Made by a program: the position numbers and the translations under genes. From assembly GCA_007644065.1 (NCBI GenBank), contig VJWN01000006.1, positions 248,001 through 312,000 of the forward strand: 64,000 bases of DNA. The letters are read 5' to 3'. A model generated the notes under the pieces. The model was not told the origin of the DNA. It did no database searches and saw only the letters and a list, made by a program, of their open reading frames with translations. Position 1 is the first letter of the stretch. Every line of letters begins with the position of its first letter. The stretch comes from Margaritispora aquatica (taxonomy: Eukaryota > Ascomycota > Leotiomycetes > Helotiales > Discinellaceae). Shown piece by piece: positions 25,766 to 62,232 of this stretch.

Positions 25766-26150
25766 TTACATGCAAGTGCACGTTCTGCATCACTCGTCAG
25801 CTACTTCAAACTTCACGCTCGACGTGACAACACCACAAAACTCACCCATCAGCAGAGCACAGCCCACCATTAAGATGCCCAGCATTCACGCAACCCACCG
25901 AGCACGTCGAGTAGCAGGAGATCAAATCCGGACTCGCGACAGGCATCGCCTTTGCCTCAGCATCTCTTGCCTGGATGCCAGTCAAGCAAGTACATGTGCC
26001 AGCGGAGTCGCAAAGACCGCCTTGGAGCAGCCCAGCTTGCACGCAGGAGAGAGAACAGGTCGACCAGCACGAGATGAGATCGGGAACTGGTGCGGCTTGT
26101 GTTCCTACAGCGAGGAGGAGGATAGAGGAGATGATGGTGTAGAATTGCAT
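25766..26150 (-). CDS. secreted two-domain cysteine-stabilised (defensin-like) peptide
   Basis: Exon 1 is 25846-26150 and exon 2 only 19 nt (25766-25784), separated by a 61-nt GT-AG intron; the product is 107 aa. Residues 1-20 form a signal peptide. Two near-identical six-cysteine domains follow (about 24-57 and 75-107), each with spacing Cys-X3-Cys-X3-Cys-X10-Cys-X5-Cys-X-Cys. This includes the C-X3-C, GLC-X5-C and C-X-C elements of CS-alpha-beta peptides. The last two cysteines of domain 2 are supplied only by exon 2; without splicing the frame stops after SADG. The linker contains DAEAKA but no Lys-Arg site. CS-alpha-beta peptides are often antimicrobial or channel-active; the role here is inferred, not shown. 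Confidence 0.8.
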
Positions 26151-28982: not shown

Positions 28983-31900
28983 CTAAGCAAGTGCACCTCT
29001 ACCACCAACACTAAGCAACGCCTGCTTCTGCTCCTTGCTGATCACCGCAGCTGTCAAACCCCCATTCTCAGGCGCCTTCAAGAATCCAATACCCACGAGA
29101 TAAGCAAGATATTTACCCATGATCTCCTCCGTGACAGCACCACCAGCAGACAGATCCTCGTTCGTGAACTTGGTGTCGGCCTTGAGGGTAGCAGCCGCAT
29201 TGACATCGTCCATTTCAGGCGCGATGGTGTCGGCTGGGAGGTCGGTGGTTGCGAAGTGGTAGAGTGGCATTCTAAAAATCGTTAATATGTGATACTGTGT
29301 GTGACGTTGCGGGAAGAGAAATTTGAGAAATTGGGGTTGTGAGATGTAGTACTAGAACAAGAGCGGTGAAAGAAACTTACAAAGCGTGCTGCTCGTTGCC
29401 CTCAACAGCAGCGTACTCCTCCAGCTTTGCCTTCCATACCGAATACTCAACCTCAGGAACATCGTACCCGTATTTTTGCAATGTGGCCAAATACTCGCTG
29501 AATGTCAGGCGTGGATGACTTGTAACCTGGGCAACACCGAGAGGCTTCTTAGGTGGGCTCAATGCAGCAGCAATCACGATGCGTGCTACGTGGTTGACAG
29601 GAACCATGTTGACAGTATTAGAGATCTTAGGCCGACAGCCGAGTTGAATACATCCCTTTGCCATACGGATCAAGAAATCGTCCGTGTTGGCCACACCTGA
29701 TGTTTTGTCGCCAGTGATATAACCAGGACGAATGATGGTACCACGAAGACCACGAGCTCCAGCTTCGCGAACGAGATACTCGGATACCCACTTGGATTGA
29801 CCATAACCCGTCCCAAGTCCCTTCGCACTTCCCGAAAGATCATCAGCTTCTGAAACAGCAGTGCCAGCCTTAGATTGATCAACGAAATACTGAGTGTCAA
29901 GGACAGAGGTAGAAGAGACAAATGACAAATGCTTTGGTGTGCCAATAGCGCAAAGAGCGAGGACATCAAGTGTTCCTTGGACGTTGGCAGGTTTGAGATT
30001 TGAGTATGGATACACCCAATGCACCTGGGCACCATTGTGTACAATCACATTGATGTCTCGAGAAAGTTGCTTCCATTCCGACTCACTGAGACCAAGACGT
30101 GGATCACCAAGGTTTCCAGTCACGAAGCTGAGGCGAGAACCCCAAGAAGGGTTCCAGACGCCATATGCCTTGCAAGTTCTCACCACTCGATCGTAAGCGG
30201 CAGGGCCATCGATAGCTCGAACATGAGCAACAACATGGATAGAGGGTGACTCTCTTGTTAGCAAGTCTCGAAGAAGATATGCTCCCAAGAAACCAGTAGC
30301 GCCAGTGAGCAAGACCTTCAGCGGAGTCTTTGCTGTGATCTCATCATCAGCTGAGGGGAAGGATGAAGGAAGAGTCTTAGCAAGTGCAATAGCATCTGCT
30401 TCATAATCCTCAACTGTCTCTGCGTGGCCATTGATATCACCATTCGTAGAAGACAATCGAGCATCAATCTGGGCAGCGAAGCCCTTCAATGTTGGGTTCT
30501 GGAAAATAAGACTCATGTTGACTTTGACAGTGTCCCATCTCTTGTTTATTCTGAAGAGCATCTGCTGAGCCAGGATACTATGCCCTCCAATGTCGAAGAA
30601 AGAATCATCGGGACTGAGTGTTCTCTCATCGATGGTTGAGATCAGAGAACCCCAAATCGCAGCAACCTCCATCTCGGTTTCCGATAACTCTGCGATCTTG
30701 CCCTTGGGTCTTGCCGCAGCATATTGAGCTGCATCGGGGAAGGGAAGTGCTGGCTTGTCCTTTTTGCCATTAGGGTTCAGGGGAAATTTCATCAATGGAA
30801 TGATGACTTCCGGAATTCCGTAAGCTGGCAGTTTGGTCTTGAGATATGTCTTGACATCATCTCCGAGGGGCCAGAATCTACGGAGCATCCCCTGGATATC
30901 ATCGCCCCCAGAAGTATCGTCTATCAGACCGTGCTTCTCTAGCCACTTTGGCCACTTTTTCATATCTGGAACAAAATAGCTGACCAAAGTCTGCTCTTCA
31001 TCCTTATTTCTTCGAACAAGAGTGACGTTGTCTAGGACCATCTCGTGGTTCGAGATGAAAGTGTCAATCTCAGTAAGCTCGATTCTAAAACCTCGAATCT
31101 TGACTTGATCATCCGCACGGCCAACGCACTCAACATCACCAGTCTCCATGTATCGACCAAGATCACCGGATCTATACATACGATCTCGGGGACCCTTATA
31201 AAACTCCCTCCATGGCTCCTCAGAGACAGACTTTGCAGCTTTCTTGTCTTCCTCGATCCACTTGGCGTTATCTACGAACCAGCTGTCAACAAACTTTGTC
31301 TTTGTGAGCTCGTCGCTACCAAGGTATCCTTCCGCCAGTCCAGCAGCCCGAACATATATTTCACCAACCTCACCCACATTGCAAATCCTGTCTCTGTTTT
31401 CTCGATCTACAATCAGAAGTTGAACATCCTTCATGCCTTTGCCAGCAGGAATGATGTTGCCCATATTCTCCAAGTATTGAGGGTCGGCAGCTCGGCTTGG
31501 GATTTCAAAGTAGCTAACAGCACGTTGCGTCTCCGTTGTTCCGTACATATTCACAATAAAAACATTCTCAGCCAGGTTCTGCAATGCCTTGCAATCTCTC
31601 TTAATCAAAATATCTCCCACAAAGAAAGAATGGTGTAGTGCTGGAAACTCAGCACTAGCTCCTCCAACAAGAATCTGTCCCATGGCAGGTGTCAAATGTG
31701 TCACAGTGGCTCCATGCTCCCGCATCCACTCCGCCAACTTTTCATGCTGGATGTCATCCTTGGAGGGAACCAGAAGTTGAGCTCCCAGGAATAGGGGTGT
31801 GAAGATATCTCTCTGGATAGGATCGTGGGCAATCCCACTTAACATAGTAAACTTATCATCCTTGGTCAATTTGAATTGCTCGGCCATCCAGTCAAAGTAG

Positions 31901-32577
31901 TAAGCTAAAGAGAAATGTCTACCTCGTACACCTTTTGGTCGACCTTCAGATCCTGAGGTGAAGGACAGTGTGGGAATCGAGTCTGGTCCAACGACAACAC
32001 CGGCAGTCTGGGACTTCAGTGATAATTGTGGAGTAAGCACATCTGAGCCATCAAGAGTGCCGCCCAACAAGGTTCCATCGTCTTTGAGTTCCAGTCCTGG
32101 TACCTCAGTCCTAAGATCCAAGTTCTCCTTGATCCAAGTCCGAACTTTCTTGGTCAATTCTCCAGCCTCTCTTGTAGCTTTGTCAATAACGACTAAAGCA
32201 CGTGGCCTGGCAACATCCAGATAAATGATCTGACGATCTGGAGGGTAAGAAGGATCAATAACGGAAAATGTTGCTCCAGCCTTCAGAATACCCATCACAG
32301 TGACGACCAAGTCCACACCTCTGTGGCTATAAGACATGACAACTTCTCCACGCTGAATTCCCGACTGCACCAAATGGTGAGCCAGTAAATTTGACGCTTC
32401 ATTGATTTGACGGTAGGTAAACTCTCTTCGTGGTGATGAGCCTGAAGCGGTCTCTACCACACAGAGTCGATCTGGGTGTGCTTCTGCATTCTTTTCGAAG
32501 ATATCTTGAATTGCACCACGGAAAGCAGACCAGTGAAGGTCTGCTGTGGGATCGGGGATTGCTGATTGTGAAGCCAT
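28983..32577 (-). CDS. LYS2: L-2-aminoadipate reductase (Lys2)
   Basis: Exons 29381-32577 and 28983-29271, separated by a 109-nt intron, encode 1161 aa. The start is the ATG at 32577; the open frame extends further upstream without an ATG. Domains in order: adenylation (LSFTSGSEGRPKG near 200, MYGTTETQ near 344, YRSGDLGR near 469, VKIRGFRIEL); peptidyl carrier (FDIGGHSILAQQ near 660, Ser for phosphopantetheine); NADPH-dependent thioester reductase (LLTGATGFLGAYLL near 762, YGQSKW near 924). The enzyme activates 2-aminoadipate as AMP ester, loads it on the carrier Ser and releases the semialdehyde in fungal lysine synthesis. It needs a separate Lys5-type transferase, not in this window. Confidence 0.97.
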
Positions 32578-33462
32578 GATTTGACCAGTTTTCGATAGCA
32601 AAGGATATGTACCTGTACCAGTCTCTAGACCTTGGTAGAAAAGAATTGCTGAATCTTTCTATAAATTCGACTTTTATCTAAAACTACCCCGCAGGTGCAG
32701 CAATGATTCAGAGAGGTAGAAGGGAATTGATAACTGAAACGAGATTTAAATCGGAGAGTGGGCCACCAAAATCATGGAAAGATCGTTGGTTGAGTTGATA
32801 AATATCCACGAAGGTAAAGTGAAGGTTTTATGTAATACTTCCAATTCGAGAAGAGTCATACATGCTGTCTGGTGGGGTTGGTGGTTTTTGTGATTTTTTG
32901 TGGATGACGACGGGCAGAATCTTCCCCAGATTATTTTTTTTTCCTTCACCGCAATCGGACAGCCCAAAGCAGACACTACGTACTGTGACACGTGATGGTT
33001 TCATCAACCCCTGCGGTACGAGTACGGAGGGACTGTCCAGCTAAGACTAAGGGACATTTTTAGATGGATCCCGACCCATTGAAGTGGAACGAACATATGA
33101 GGAAGATCAAGTTCAACTCTGTCAAAGCTGGATCCTGTCAGTGATTTGAATTCATTTCTAATTCTTTCCTTCATTCCTTCACTTTCGGAATCGAACGTGC
33201 ACCTATTTGCTTTGGTGTTTGGTGCTTGGCTATTTCGACGTTCCTCTTTATCCAGAGCAAGCAAGCCCTTGAGAACACGGTTGGCTTTGGAACTAGATCC
33301 ACGAATCGCGTCACCCAGACTGGAAAGGAGAGCAAGTTGCATCTATACTTCATCACTAGAAGATAGGGTGTGATATCCTTTTGACTTTTCAATGCCATCT
33401 TAATTGATAGGCAATCTGCGAACCAATTCCATAAATTACAACGGTTGACAACCATCGACGAA
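32578..33462. promoter_or_regulatory. divergent promoter of LYS2 and a type II membrane protein gene
   Basis: 885 bp between two start codons pointing away from each other. An AGAGTCAT at about 32850 resembles a degenerate Gcn4/CPC1 half site, but no full TGACTCA was seen. Confidence 0.4.
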
Positions 33463-56903: not shown

Positions 56904-58150
56904 TGCGCAGTGTTCGTTTGTGCGTACGGGGACCGCTCGACACGGAGATGGTAGAAGACGAAAGTCCGGAAGGGTGTTAGGACGTTTGAGTGAATGACAG
57001 TGAGTGCTATCGCATTGACTCGTCCATTACGCGTCGAGGCTGGTGTGGTGGTGAGAGTGTCAATATAATGGGCGCGTTTACAGGTGGGAGACGATGCTTG
57101 CGCACGATGCGGGCGGGAAGCGGGCTCACGTGCCGAGGGGTTGAATTCCATTCCAGATTCAAGTCTGAAATATTGGTGCAAGCATTTGAGGGATAGGTAA
57201 GTTTGAGTGAATGATTATGCATTGATTTGTAGTAAATCAAACTCTTGCATTATTCTCAATGCCTTCAGAAATCTTGGTGATATCTCTCTAATATAATGCG
57301 AATTCGCAGTGATGGAGATTTTACCATCACTGTTCATCGTTGTCTATGTTCAATTTACAGTGCTGGTTAGTCTAATAGCAAAATTCCTCCACAAATAGAC
57401 CATACATAGTTGTGACCTCTGTGTCTCATTCTCAACCTCTCAGTCACCAACCAACTCCTAATTTTCGCCATTAGATTTGGCATGAACAGACTCTGAAGAT
57501 GCCTCAATCACATGTGTGAAGTCGCTTTGGAGTGTATAGCAATTGTGACCCTCAGTAAACCATCAGGCCAACAAACCAGATTTCGGTTTGGAATATGCCG
57601 TTCGAGCAAGTACTCGTATAACATGATCGAGCACATTCAAGACGGAACCAAGTCAAGTGAGAAATCCACATCAATGAGACCAAACAAACCATAGGATCAA
57701 AGTCAACCCAAGAGCGCGGTAGAAAAACCATCCGATTTGTCTCTCTGTCTACGCAAGCAGCTTTGAAAGAAAACAGAGGCAAAAGATCACTCCTCGCATG
57801 ACGATTGATTGAAAAGTACAAACAAAGCAAACCGGCCGGGGTAATTTTTTTTAGAAGATCCTTTTTTTCACCGCGAATTGCTCTCTCGTTTTCTTTGACG
57901 AACTCAATATCCCATTTTCTCTCGATCAACTGCTGGCGCAAGAAACCTCGAAGTATGTTCAGAATGTAGTGTCCCACGCGATCGCTCATCCGAATTTAGA
58001 ATTGCTCGATGAATGGATCGCTGGCCATAGTGGGTAGTGTGTATGTATAGTTTGGTATGGCACAAATCGGGGGTGGGTTGGTAGAGAGGTGTCAGGTAGG
58101 TATCTTCTTCTGCCGCATGATGAACGTAATGAAACATTGAGCCCGCAAAG
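56904..58150. other. intergenic, no supported gene
   Basis: LSM1 promoter and the 3' flank of the Nudix gene. The ATG frame 57552-57989 (minus, 145 codons) was rejected. Confidence 0.45.
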
Positions 58151-58743
58151 CTATTTGCGAATGGTACTCCTGTTCAAGGCTTCGAGCAGTTCCGGCCGCG
58201 CCTTGAGAGCTTCCGCCGCCTCGGCGTAACTCGCCCATTGTCGTGTCCTCTTGTGCTTCTCTGGCCAATCTGTCTCTTCCCGTGTGACTGTGACTTCGTA
58301 GAACTGGTAGAGAGCCTTTGGTGCTTCTTTTGACATGTGTTTCGGGGCTCTGGTCTCCTTGATGGTGCCTAGGTCGTAGTCGACATTGCAAGTGATGCCC
58401 GCCTCTTCCCATGCCTCTCGTTGTGCAGCCTCAGTGCACGACTCGTCAGACTCCCATCCGCCCTTTGGGAGGACCCAGCCATTCCGCCGAGTAGATTGGA
58501 TCAAGAGAACGTGTGTTTTTGCTTCGTTGAGAGGGACAACTCCTGCGACTAGTCGCTCTCCTGTGTCACCATAACCTGGAGGTAAAGACAGTGGTCAGCG
58601 AATGGTCGCGTTTCTCGGAAGCTCAAAAAAAGTTGCCCCACGTGCATTGGTTTTCTACCCATTCAAAAAAGAATAAAAAAACAAGAAGACTTACGTTGAT
58701 TCTTTCTCCCCGTACGTGACTCCATGGAGCGACTTGCTGCCAT
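58151..58743 (-). CDS. Nudix hydrolase, diphosphoinositol polyphosphate phosphohydrolase-like
   Basis: Exons 58695-58743 and 58151-58575, joined in phase 1 over a 119-nt intron, give 157 aa. The Nudix box runs from GGWESDESCTEAA through REAWEEAGI and matches GX5EX7REUXEEXGU. It is preceded by RRNGWVLPKGG, typical of the Ddp1/Aps1 group, and followed by KALYQFYEVTVTREETDWPE. Members of this group hydrolyse diphosphoinositol polyphosphates and diadenosine polyphosphates. The size (yeast Ddp1 is 188 aa) and motif context fit that subgroup, although substrate preference cannot be read from sequence. Confidence 0.9.
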
Positions 58744-59801
58744 GATGAAGACACTGCTTCACCTAATTTGGTGCAAAGCTCGAATCCGGAGCACAATGGC
58801 GGATTTTGTGGAGGGAAACTTTCAGTGGGTGAGGTGAGGTGGGTTGGAAATTCGGCTGGGAAGGCAGTCGGTCTTAAAGCTCGGGAAGCGTCATTGTGTC
58901 TAGGTAGGTAGGTAGGTGGGGTGATGGGTATGTTTAGTTGTAAAAGTAAAGTAGAAAGGTAGACCGGAAGTTCCAGTGAAAGATCTCCCAAGGTGAGGTA
59001 AGAAGTCGGGAGGTTGCAAGTCGTACAGAGAGAGATCCACGATCAGACGACGTAGGTGGGCAAGGTACGAAGGAAAAGGGTCCCCAGGGGAAAAGAAAAG
59101 AGGGTGTGTGGACGGAACAGTATAGTAGGTAGGGAGGTAGTCGTTTGTGATCAAGGCTGCTTGGGGGGGCAAGGTAAGCCTTATAAAGATTAGAGCTTAG
59201 CTTGGTAAAGTAAAGCCAGGCAGAAAAGGGAGAGAAAAGAGTGGAAGCTAAAGAGTTTATAGTAGTGTGATAATAGTAGTGTGGTGGGCGGTTTTGGCTC
59301 TGGTCTTTGACCGAATATTTATTTCGGATGCGTCCTCCCAAAGGAAAAAAAAAAAGTCGCGCGACTTGGGACGGGACAGATCCGAGAAGAGAGACGAGAC
59401 GAGATATATAAAGGCCAAGTAGTATTTAGCTTAGTAGGTAGTAGGGGCTACTTACCGGAGCAATAAGGAAGGGTAGGAAGGGTAGATAGGGGAGGTAGGG
59501 TAGGAGGGTTTTATTTACACTTTTATAAGCCCTTTTACTCAACCTTGCCAGAAGAGGCAAACCCATTGATCTTTTTTAGACCTATTAGCGGCCCTTGTCT
59601 CGTGCTCATTTTTGCTGGCATGGCTTTCGCCGTTTCGGCATCTGTGCCACCGTAGGTTGGATAGTGTGGTGTGGTGTGGTGTGGTGCTGATGTTTGAGTA
59701 GGTACAGTAGTGAGTAAGGTAGTGCAAAAGGAGATGGGAGATGAAAGATGGGAGATGAGAAATGGGGAAACAAAAAGGAGGCTTTGAAAACGCCCGCCAT
59801 G

Positions 59802-59864
59802 GGCTTGTTTGGCTTGTTTGGCTTGTTTGGCTTGTTTGGCTTGTTTGGCTTTGTTGGCTTGCTT
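59802..59864. repeat. 9-bp tandem repeat, about 7 units
   Basis: Unit GGCTTGTTT occurs five times perfectly, then twice with substitutions. Since the unit is a multiple of three, it reads as Gly-Leu-Phe repeats on the plus strand and Lys-Pro-Asn on the minus strand without being a gene. Confidence 0.9.
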
Positions 59865-60234
59865 GGGGTTCGAGACACCCTTTGCTTATCCTGCTGGTCC
59901 TGTTCGTCTTCTCTGCAGTACACTACAGTACGCCGTTATGGCAATGGTAATATCAATGGCATGTCAACGAATATTATAGTTGACTAACTACAATATCCTA
60001 CCTAATTCATAAGATGTTCTATCGAGGTAATGAACTTCCATGTTATATTGTCCAGCTTTTCAATACGTTCATTACCTGAGATATTCAAGAAAGAGTAACC
60101 AGCTTGAGTCTTTAATAAGATACCCAGAATGAGAATTCCTATTACAGTATGTACTATACTATACGATTCAGGAAAGGAATAGAAAGCTGTAGGCGAACAA
60201 GGTAGACTAATCCGGATTAGTCGCTTAGGAAAAG

Positions 60235-60288
60235 CTACCTACCTACCTACCTACCTACCTACCTACCTATCTACCTACCCTACCCTAC
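60235..60288. repeat. CTAC tetranucleotide microsatellite
   Basis: CTAC repeats, perfect for about 9 units and then with a few substitutions. Confidence 0.9.
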
Positions 60289-60316
60289 TTGTACTTGTAT
60301 TTGATATAAAACTACC

Positions 60317-60370
60317 TAGATGTTAGATATTAGATGTTAGATGTTAGATGTTAGATGTTAGACGTTAGAC
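60317..60370. repeat. 7-bp tandem repeat (TAGATGT)
   Basis: Seven or so copies of TAGATGT/TAGATAT/TAGACGT in tandem. Confidence 0.88.
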
Positions 60371-60961
60371 GATAACCCTTACCGGGTGAGAGTGAGACTC
60401 GTTTCGCAGTTTCAGGACTAGACGCCGTTCCAATTCCAGTTTCTTAGCTTCGTCACACAAACTGGCCATTGGGGGTCTTTTCTTCCTCGTGTCTGGTGTT
60501 TACAATCCTACTATCCTCCTCCTGTCCTACTGTAACGCATCATCATCATCATCATCCGAACGGCAACCCCATTCCCATTCCCATCCCACGCTGTGACGCC
60601 AGCTTCCCACCGTTCGCTTGAGGCCCCACGATTCTTGTTACGTTGAGGTGGGGGTTCTACTCTTCTTTTCCCCTCCTCTGCCAATCGACCTGGAATTAGG
60701 CGATTTCCCTGGCTTGACCTACTATTCTGCCCTCCTTCAGCTCGTACTTGACCTACAAAGCACAGCAGCAGTGAAGAGTGCCATCCGGATTGCTGGATCA
60801 CTGCCTACTGGCTGTCTGACTATGGCACTTGATATCGTTGAGGTGTTACCATACCAGCCTTCGTCATTGGTATGTCCTGTATTGGTAGGGTAGGGTAAGG
60901 TAAGGTGAGGTGAGGTAAGATATTGATGGCAAATCATGAAGAATTCTTTAATCTTTCTGGT

Positions 60962-60996
60962 CTTCAGTCTTCAATCTTCAATCTTCAATCTTCAAT
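60962..60996. repeat. 7-bp tandem repeat (CTTCAAT), 5 units
   Basis: CTTCAGT followed by four perfect CTTCAAT units; a second ATTCATC heptamer array lies just downstream at about 61027-61052. Confidence 0.9.
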
Positions 60997-62232
60997 CTCT
61001 AGGTCCTTCACTCACCACTCACCACTCATCATTCATCATTCATCATTCATCACGTACCCCTCACTTGGAGCTGAGATCAAACCAAACACAAACTCTGTAC
61101 CCCAGGAAATGCCGTGCACTACCACCGCCTTCGTACTTGTCTCCGTCCCTTAGTCTGCTTTGACTTCCTATCAACTGCGTCTGCGTCTACCGCTTCTACA
61201 CTCCTCTACCTCCACCTCTACCTCTACCTCTACCTACCTAGTTTCTTCTCACCGCAAGACTTGCTTGGCCAAATCCAAACCGTGCCTGCACTAGTCAAGT
61301 CAAGACACTGCTCATTGGTGTTGGTACGTGTTGCTCGCCCTTTTTATGCTTCCAAGACCACTACCACTACTCATCACCCACTCACTCACTCACTTCCTTG
61401 CCCACTTTCCACAACTCCCTAGCCTCCGAGCTTCAAGTAACTCCGTCGCCTCCATCCATCAAGCATCGAGCAAGCGCCCAGTATTCCTTCCTCGATCTGC
61501 AGGCTCAAATCGCACAGATCTCTTTCTCTGCCCCTCTCACAGTCGCTCTAGGCTCCATCTCACACCTGCTCACACCTTCTCACACCGTCACCGTCACCGT
61601 CTTGTCAGCCTTGCAAAACGGCTGGATTGGCGTTCATTTGCCTACCATACTTACTCACCTACGACGAGGCGGGTGACAGCGCAATATCCAGAGTTGACTC
61701 CTTTTACAGGGCAACATCAGAAGAGGTGCACTTTGCACTTTGCTGCTTCACCGCCCGAGCCGCCGGCTATTGTGTTATACCTTACAATATCCATGGTACT
61801 TTTACTCATACACAGACCACAGACTACCAGACTACCGTATAGTATCCTCGCTTGCCTCCTTTTCAGGCGACATATCTAGAGTACACTATCCACTATCCGC
61901 TATCCACTACAGAAGAGGTCATTTGGCAGCTCCGGAAACAACTCAGGGTCGCATATTCGATACTAGCTGGGTACCCACAGCAATACCTAGCATTACCTAT
62001 CAATTCTCATGATATCGGCCGTTTGCTCTTCCTTGACCAGAATCGAGAAAGGCTCCAGCTCAAACACAGCTGCCACTGGCTTCTGACACCGGCATACGAA
62101 GCCGCCAAAATTCGCCGCTCCGATCCACTGGGACAATTTCATGCACCAGCTGCAGCAAAAATCTGCCCTTCACCTGCAACTGCAACATCTGCAAGCTGCA
62201 AGCTGCACCCGTCAAGCTCACGCCTGTCCGTC

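What the first reader, a model, noticed from the sequence alone, without database searches (positions are those of the whole stretch)
25766..26150. Secreted protein built from two tandem defensin-like (CS-alpha-beta) domains, completed by a 19-nt exon
Seen directly: a signal peptide, then two six-cysteine domains with identical spacing (C-X3-C-X3-C-X10-C-X5-C-X-C) and near-identical sequence (DLISCWSTC versus DLISCYSTC). Domain 2 is cut off after its fourth cysteine in the unspliced frame. A 61-nt GT-AG intron adds a tiny exon carrying exactly the missing Cys-X-Cys. That match in register is strong evidence for both the gene model and the fold. Fungal CS-alpha-beta peptides are usually single-domain; a tandem dimer with a linker lacking a Lys-Arg site suggests a two-headed peptide or one processed differently. 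Activity (antimicrobial, host-directed or signalling) is inference.
Basis: partly seen in the sequence, partly recalled or inferred. Interest (0 to 1): 0.78.

Follow-up and report, generated by a model that had tools for sequence, protein, structure and literature searches.

The report
Fungal defensin-like multi-peptide precursor gene
A fungal gene encodes a secreted protein with two small defensin-like units joined by a linker laid out like the yeast mating-pheromone precursor, so it is probably cut into two free peptides rather than acting as one two-headed molecule.

Summary
On the minus strand, 26150-25766 encodes a signal peptide and two C-X3-C-X3-C-X10-C-X5-C-X-C domains, the second completed by a 61-nt intron (GTGAGT, branch site GCTGAC, CAG) and a 19-nt exon. 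Eight relatives have frames ending at the same residue; four annotated relatives end in the matching short tail.

The interpretation changes. Tandem form is normal here: 17 of 27 proteins (26 relatives plus this one) have 2 to 4 strict domains; the 11 relatives with organism names are from Helotiales genera. Most linkers carry a Kex2-type site, then X-Ala/X-Pro dipeptides in register, as in alpha-factor precursors (35 linkers scored: 89 dipeptides in register, 17 one residue off, shuffle mean 18.8, maximum 39 of 5,000). This linker lacks Lys-Arg but reads IQAR|DA-EA-KA-MP-VA-SP|DLISC.

Best reading: a precursor of separate defensin-like peptides, neutral to acidic in most of the family. Cleavage, fold and activity are not shown experimentally; structure models are weak. 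Two-domain fungal defensins have a precedent (Bizyarsin, PMC5234102). New variant of a known kind.

The parts
25845..26150 (-). Exon 1 frame: signal peptide, domain 1 complete, linker, domain 2 up to Cys4-X3-Gly
   Evidence: Open frame of 102 codons; homologues over the full length. The last base of the range, 25845, is the G of the donor GT and belongs to the intron; coding exon 1 strictly ends at 25846 with the first two bases of a Gly codon.
26094..26150 (-). Signal peptide, predicted cleavage after Ala19 (T-Q-A|A-P-V-P)
   Evidence: Hydrophobic stretch read from the sequence. The simple rule gives two candidate sites, after Gly16 and after Ala19; Ala19 is my choice. No signal-peptide program was run.
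25986..26069 (-). Domain 1, Cys28 to Cys55
   Evidence: Spacing C-X3-C-X3-C-X10-C-X5-C-X-C; modelled helix 25-38, strands 45-47 and 53-55, low to medium confidence.
25917..25985 (-). Linker LTGIQAR|DA-EA-KA-MP-VA-SP|DLIS: putative Kex2-type site and Ste13-type dipeptide spacer
   Evidence: Run of 6 X-Ala/X-Pro dipeptides right after Arg, printed frequency 0.0001 in 200,000 shuffles of the tail.
25846..25916 (-). Domain 2 up to the splice donor (Cys79 to the split Gly codon)
   Evidence: 19 of 28 residues from DLISC to Gly identical with domain 1.
25785..25845 (-). 61-nt phase-2 spliceosomal intron, donor GTGAGT, branch GCTGAC, acceptor CAG
   Evidence: same break residue in relatives. Not tested with RNA.
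25766..25784 (-). Exon 2 (19 nt): last base of Gly, then Thr-Cys5-Thr-Cys6-Met-stop
   Evidence: four annotated relatives end TCTCL, TCTCYE or DCTCYE.

Best explanation
The gene encodes a secreted precursor of two near-identical small disulfide-rich peptides of defensin-like (probably CS-alpha-beta) type, laid out like an alpha-factor precursor. Steps: the signal peptide is removed (inferred); a Kex2-type protease cuts after the Arg of IQAR in the linker (inferred); a Ste13-type dipeptidyl aminopeptidase removes X-Ala/X-Pro dipeptides from the new N-termini until it meets DLISC (inferred, with a strong register signal for the linker); a Kex1-type carboxypeptidase may trim the C-terminal Arg of peptide 1 (recalled pathway, not looked for here). 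Two free peptides starting DLISC result, one ending in the linker shortly after Cys6, the other at the stop codon. As far as relatives are named, the family lies in Helotiales; unit number varies from 2 to 4. Most of its domains are neutral or acidic without a basic residue in the Cys4-Cys5 loop, so a membrane-attacking role is less likely than a binding role (another microbe's target, a receptor of its own or of a host); which one is open.
For: Linker register: in the full set of 37 linkers from 24 of 27 proteins, 35 have a basic residue in the first 12 positions; X-Ala/X-Pro runs directly after the first Arg (else Lys) total 89, against 17 one residue off and a shuffle mean of 18.8 (max 39, 0 of 5,000 reach 89); 25 of 35 have at least one such dipeptide, against 10 of 35 one residue off; cutting after the last K/R instead gives 88 against 24. 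A first, stricter set gave 74 against 15 on 26 of 28 linkers. The site is Lys-Arg in 19 of 35 and a single-basic X-Arg in 13. Kex2 is described as wanting Arg at P1, tolerating several residues at P2 and preferring an aliphatic P4 (PMC8528282, passages); the window site IQAR has Ile at P4. X-Ala/X-Pro after Kex2 sites is the published Ste13 signature (PMC6339444, passages). The genome holds frames with Peptidase_S8 and proprotein-convertase P domain side by side and a 915-aa protein with DPPIV_N and Peptidase_S9 domains and, by eye, one N-terminal membrane stretch. Fold: CX3C/CXC motifs and GxC; PF01097 at 22.4 bits over its 20.4 cut-off in P0016, and matched at E<=1 by 9 of 12 members; helix-strand-strand in both domains of the P0016 model. 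Charge: 35 of 39 complete domains net 0 or negative, 38 of 39 without K/R/H in the Cys4-Cys5 loop.
Against: No peptide, transcript or protease data. The window's linker has Ala at P2, which is not among the five best alternatives (Arg, Thr, Pro, Glu, Ile) named in PMC8528282. Two of 37 linkers (P0005 third, P0007 first) have no basic residue where expected and 10 of 35 have no dipeptide in register under the rule. The aliphatic-P4 point is weak: in the first set all 8 single-basic sites had I, V or A against 7 of 16 Lys-Arg sites with L, I, V or A (Fisher p 0.0095 on counts I entered by hand), but in the fuller set it is 10 of 13 against 9 of 19 (read, no test run). The linkers are related, so shuffles overstate independence. 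The match of the two N-termini depends on choosing Ala19 as signal-peptide site. Fold models are weak (mean pLDDT 55.6 and 66.4) and Foldseek finds nothing significant. The window protein reaches no Pfam cut-off.
Confidence: 0.6

Rival explanations
1. The mature product stays one chain, a two-headed (bivalent) defensin-like protein; the linker is a flexible spacer that no longer is, or never was, cut here.
For: No dibasic site in this linker. The four-domain P0005, whose domain 1 shares 23 of 24 residues with the window's (the best of six relatives compared), has two TR sites and one linker without any basic residue, so cutting sites may be decaying in this branch. MtDef5 of Medicago is a two-domain defensin (PMC5700942, abstract seen in the listings).
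Against: Six X-Ala/X-Pro dipeptides remain in register after an Arg with aliphatic P4; a plain spacer has no reason to keep that register.
Confidence: 0.25
2. The peptides are classical antibacterial fungal defensins of the plectasin/micasin kind, made in two copies for dose. This concerns activity and can be true together with the best explanation.
For: Defensin_2 match over cut-off in one relative; an anionic fungal defensin, AfusinC, is active on Gram-positive bacteria (PMC6181372, passages).
Against: No basic residue in the Cys4-Cys5 loop in 38 of 39 domains; Zytrisin-1, which lacks such a residue, was inactive in the inhibition-zone assay reported (PMC5234102, Results part 1).
Confidence: 0.3
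3. The six-cysteine unit is not CS-alpha-beta but another disulfide-rich fold (for example CFEM-like, as the cut-off label 'Extracellular membrane prot' on P0009, P0014 and P0017 may hint).
For: Cys1 lies only three residues before Cys2, closer than in insect defensins as I recall them; low-confidence models; the labels seen.
Against: No CFEM match among Pfam hits at E<=10 for the window protein, at E<=1 for 12 proteins or for the three so labelled; six cysteines, not eight (CFEM count recalled). Pfam and PDB profile hits are to defensins, in register; helix-strand-strand order.
Confidence: 0.12
4. The gene model is wrong: no intron, and domain 2 ends after Cys4-X3-Gly.
For: No RNA evidence; frames of eight relatives also stop at that residue when unspliced.
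Against: Donor, branch and acceptor signals and restored Cys-X-Cys; four annotated relatives continue TCTC/DCTC and stop; in the window the stop is the TGA inside GTGAGT.
Confidence: 0.02

Closest known systems
Fungal defensin-like peptides (fDLPs), including Zytrisins and two-domain Bizyarsin of Zymoseptoria (PMC5234102; Results part 1 and Discussion read)
   Same: Secreted six-cysteine units with CX3C and CXC; two domains in Bizyarsin; many said not to be cationic; a phase-2 intron inside the domain.
   Different: The Zytrisin intron splits the Cys4 codon and a phase-0 intron lies at the end of the signal peptide; here the intron splits a Gly codon four residues after Cys4, and in the window only domain 2 has it. 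Two to four domains with protease-type linkers. Bizyarsin's linkers were not seen (supplement not readable).
Kex2-processed repeat proteins (KEPs) and Ascomycota alpha-pheromone precursors (PMC6339444, passages and pipeline section; PMC7329392, passages)
   Same: Signal peptide, repeated units, basic site followed by X-Ala/X-Pro dipeptides.
   Different: Units are six-cysteine domains of 28 residues from Cys1 to Cys6; one to three linkers; the window's linker has no KR, RR or KK. The published pipeline of PMC6339444 asks for at least four fragments cut at KR/RR (or KK), so the window protein would not pass it.
Insect defensins (PF01097; 2ny8, 2nz3, 1ica)
   Same: Cys2-X3-Cys3 ... GG-X-Cys4-X5-Cys5-X-Cys6 aligned in register for the chains printed.
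   Different: Sequence match not significant (E 0.33 to 1.7 for the defensin rows). Single domain, longer Cys1-Cys2 stretch and basic charge are recalled.
Two-domain plant defensin MtDef5 (PMC5700942, abstract in search listing)
   Same: Two defensin domains joined by a short linker.
   Different: Plant, 50-residue domains, highly cationic, 7-residue linker.

Membership tests
CS-alpha-beta fungal defensin-like peptide | Six cysteines with Cys2-X3-Cys3 and Cys5-X-Cys6 | tested here: met
   Domain 1 directly, domain 2 after splicing; 39 complete domains in 21 of 27 proteins.
CS-alpha-beta fungal defensin-like peptide | Gly two residues before Cys4 | tested here: met
   G44 and G45 before C47, invariant in the 12 sequences of alignment A3.
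CS-alpha-beta fungal defensin-like peptide | Helix joined to a two- or three-stranded sheet | tested here: inconclusive
   Helix-strand-strand in order, low to medium confidence, no significant structural match.
CS-alpha-beta fungal defensin-like peptide | Disulfides 1-4, 2-5, 3-6 | not testable with these tools
   Needs mapping on the peptide.
Pfam PF01097 Arthropod defensin | Score over the gathering cut-off | tested here: not met
   Window protein 8.7 bits against 20.4. The relative P0016 passes with 22.4; P0014 and P0017 do not, 15.7 and 17.9. The window protein is not filed under PF01097.
Kex2-processed repeat protein (definition of PMC6339444) | At least three repeats set apart by KR, RR or KK | tested here: not met
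   Two repeats, no dibasic site in the window linker. Some relatives have three or four domains and KR linkers; none was run through the published pipeline.
Kex2-processed repeat protein (definition of PMC6339444) | Signal peptide and repeated similar units | tested here: met
   Signal peptide read from sequence, no program run; two units, 19 of 28 residues identical.
Ste13-type spacer (works like) | X-Ala/X-Pro dipeptides in register after the cut site | tested here: met
   Six in the window; family totals.
CFEM protein | Match to a CFEM profile | tested here: not met
   No CFEM family among Pfam matches.

The most novel reading that the evidence does not exclude
A Helotiales-wide family of fungal polyprotein genes that use the mating-pheromone maturation route (Kex2, then dipeptide trimming) to release two to four folded, six-cysteine defensin-like peptides from one chain, with unit number changing by gain or loss of domains, and with some linkers having drifted to single-basic sites that may still be cut. 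This would join two peptide classes that the papers seen here treat apart.
Probability: 0.55. Interest if true: 0.65.

Novelty: new variant of a known kind. Interest (0 to 1): 0.52.

Why it matters
If true, a genome survey for Kex2-processed peptides that asks for at least four dibasic fragments passes over precursors like this one. The family gives ready predictions of mature N-termini that peptidomics can test directly (DLISC in the window; Gln in 13 of the 21 linkers with a dipeptide run, counted by eye), and a natural series of linkers from Lys-Arg to Ala-Arg to none in which to measure how Kex2-type specificity and precursor design evolve together.

Tried and rejected

Considered and rejected: wrong gene model; CFEM. 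A single-domain member: the third homologue search, with candidates of single-domain length, returned 10 proteins and by eye none is a complete single-domain precursor; P0021 is nearest, one domain on a 560-base contig. The second search scored only the 7,997 candidates sharing most words, so the count of relatives is a lower bound.

Positional identity of first and last domains: small but beyond every permutation (0.0354, 0 of 2000), on related proteins. Against it, the window's domain 2 is nearer the first domain of P0002 (20 of 24) and the middle one of P0001 (19 of 24) than their last ones (18 and 15).

Literature: whether this family is in print was searched only, and I saw only the listed top rows of each. 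The word defensin has 0 occurrences in the main texts of PMC6339444, PMC7329392 and PMC9769878. Supplementary files could not be read, so members may sit unnamed in their tables. PMC8877149 had none of the six terms looked for.

Full report
Observation. The minus-strand frame from ATG 26150 reads a signal peptide, a six-cysteine domain, a linker and a second domain that stops after Cys4-X3-Gly. The stop is the TGA inside the donor GTGAGT. Taking 25845-25785 (61 nt, ending CAG) as an intron joins a 19-nt exon and gives Thr-Cys-Thr-Cys-Met-stop, in register with domain 1. With that donor no other acceptor listed gives Cys-X-Cys. A branch-site consensus GCTGAC begins 17 nt before the intron end. 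The two domains share 19 of 28 residues from DLISC and 54 of 84 bases, dN 0.30, dS 1.78, which fits selection keeping both.

Relatives. Three searches of the large protein collection found 4, 24 and 10 proteins at E<=1, 26 different ones. With the window, 27 proteins were examined; 17 have two or more strict-spacing domains up to Cys4: eight with two, six with three, three with four (counted; some of these are themselves incomplete). The other ten are fragments, have a changed or lost cysteine, or show one domain (by eye). Nine frames (the window and eight relatives) end exactly at Cys4-X3-Gly; four relatives (P0004, P0006, P0007, P0016) run on as TCTC or DCTC and stop within two residues; P0018 ends ACTC plus four residues; P0012 and P0013 turn into unrelated sequence right after that Gly, as a read-through intron would. 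So the terminal mini-exon looks like a family trait. Organism names were given for 11 of 26; the nine genera are Halenospora, Coleophoma, Mollisia, Cudoniella, Hyaloscypha, Lachnellula, Cadophora, Oculimacula and Rhynchosporium. One species of each was looked up, all Helotiales, in seven families. In its 42.4-Mb genome four protein queries found this gene alone.

Linkers. A first set took 28 linkers from 16 of the 25 proteins then held; 26 could be scored and gave 74 X-Ala/X-Pro dipeptides in register against 15 one residue off, shuffle mean 14.1, maximum 32 of 10,000. On checking I took every stretch between a Cys-X-Cys and the next Cys in all 27 proteins: 37 linkers from 24 proteins. Two have no basic residue in the first 12 positions (P0005 third, P0007 first). 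In the other 35, starting after the first Arg (or Lys if no Arg), runs total 89; one residue later 17; shuffling each tail gives a mean of 18.8 and never more than 39 in 5,000. Runs of at least one: 25 of 35 in register, 10 of 35 off. Cutting after the last K or R instead gives 88 against 24. The site is Lys-Arg in 19 of 35, single-basic X-Arg in 13 and Lys without Arg in 3. Ten of 35 have no dipeptide in register under the first rule. In some of these, by eye, a later basic residue fits (P0012 second after its second Lys, P0014 first after its second Arg, P0009 after its second Arg); in others nothing fits (P0010 first, P0015, P0017, P0018, P0024, P0026). The window has the longest run, six, shared with two others: IQAR|DA-EA-KA-MP-VA-SP|DLISC. 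On the other side a simple rule gives two signal-peptide sites: after Gly16, with no dipeptide in register, and after Ala19, which I prefer and which reads A|AP-VP|DLISC. With that choice the same trimming would give both peptides the same first residues.

Proteases. Kex2 is described as wanting Arg at P1, preferring Lys but tolerating others at P2 (next best Arg, Thr, Pro, Glu, Ile), and preferring Leu or another aliphatic residue at P4 (PMC8528282, passages read). The window's P4 is Ile, its P2 Ala. In the first set all eight single-basic sites had I, V or A at P4 against 7 of 16 Lys-Arg sites with L, I, V or A (p 0.0095 on counts entered by hand); in the fuller set this falls to 10 of 13 against 9 of 19 (read). 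Ste13 removes X-Ala/X-Pro after such sites in alpha-pheromone precursors (PMC6339444, passages and pipeline section read). The genome has adjoining frames with Peptidase_S8 and the proprotein-convertase P domain, a 915-aa protein with DPPIV_N and Peptidase_S9 domains and by eye one membrane stretch near its N-terminus, and a second, secreted-looking DPPIV-type locus. That these are the fungus's Kex2 and Ste13 is inference. A Kex1 was not looked for.

Fold. Motifs CX3C, CXC and GxC are met. The window protein stays below every Pfam cut-off; the relative P0016 passes Arthropod defensin (22.4 over 20.4) and 9 of 12 proteins match it at E<=1. A profile of ten N-terminal parts finds insect defensins first in the PDB, in register but at E 0.33 to 1.7, with a venom polypeptide among them. 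Models: window exon 1 mean pLDDT 55.6, domain 1 with helix 25-38 and strands 45-47, 53-55; there domain 2, which lacks Cys5 and Cys6, shows only a helix. P0016 mean pLDDT 66.4 with helix-strand-strand in both domains. Foldseek gave nothing significant; the first row for the window model was a mosquito defensin mutant at E 3.8, probability 0.13, and the P0016 model had one unrelated row. I take CS-alpha-beta as likely, not shown.

Activity. Of 39 complete domains in 21 proteins, 35 have net charge 0 or below between Cys1 and Cys6 and 38 have no K, R or H between Cys4 and Cys5. AfusinC shows that an anionic fungal defensin can still be antibacterial (PMC6181372, passages). So the charge lowers but does not exclude an antibacterial role.

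Evolution. First domains resemble first, and last resemble last, slightly more than expected (0.0354, none of 2000 label swaps as high). The window's domain 1 shares 23 of 24 residues with domain 1 of the four-domain P0005, and of that protein's four domains its domain 2 is nearest the fourth (19 of 24). With P0001 and P0002 domain 2 is instead nearer a non-last domain. Gain or loss of middle domains between near relatives is the likely reading, not proven.

Comparison. A fungal defensin-like protein with two domains is known: Bizyarsin of Zymoseptoria ardabiliae (one paper holds that name). What I did not see in the listings of the searches made is a fungal defensin-like family with Kex2/Ste13-type linkers. 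The KEP survey asks for at least four fragments cut at KR/RR or KK; the window protein would not pass. Verdict: real, family-wide, a new variant made of two known kinds.

Surroundings. Of 33 long frames in the window, 10 were scanned and four matched Pfam: a shikimate dehydrogenase, an AMP-binding/carrier/reductase protein, 6-phosphogluconate dehydrogenase and anthranilate synthase. Nothing there points to a shared function.

Noticed in passing
L002 (G000:C45:61952-62029, minus): A stretch scoring 20.0 bits to Arthropod defensin, just under the 20.4 cut-off, in a 103-residue open frame; possibly another defensin-like gene of this genome, or chance.
   Followed up: partly
window 29380-32658, minus: 1093-residue frame with AMP-binding, carrier and NAD-binding reductase domains, about 3.2 kb upstream of the gene.
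   Followed up: no
P0007 (Oculimacula yallundae), about residues 52-65: Domain 1 carries an insertion just before Cys5-X-Cys6; could be an intron annotated as coding, which would place an intron in a first domain too.
   Followed up: no
P0023 (Rhynchosporium agropyri): Only relative labelled with that genus; its domain has lost Cys1 and upstream units are not recognisable, a decaying copy or a wrong gene model.
   Followed up: no
window 58001-62000: GC skew swings from +0.237 to -0.259 between adjacent 2-kb stretches.
   Followed up: no
linkers of relatives: After the dipeptide run the next residue is Gln in 13 of 21 linkers, so many mature peptides could start with pyroglutamate (chemistry recalled).
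   Followed up: no
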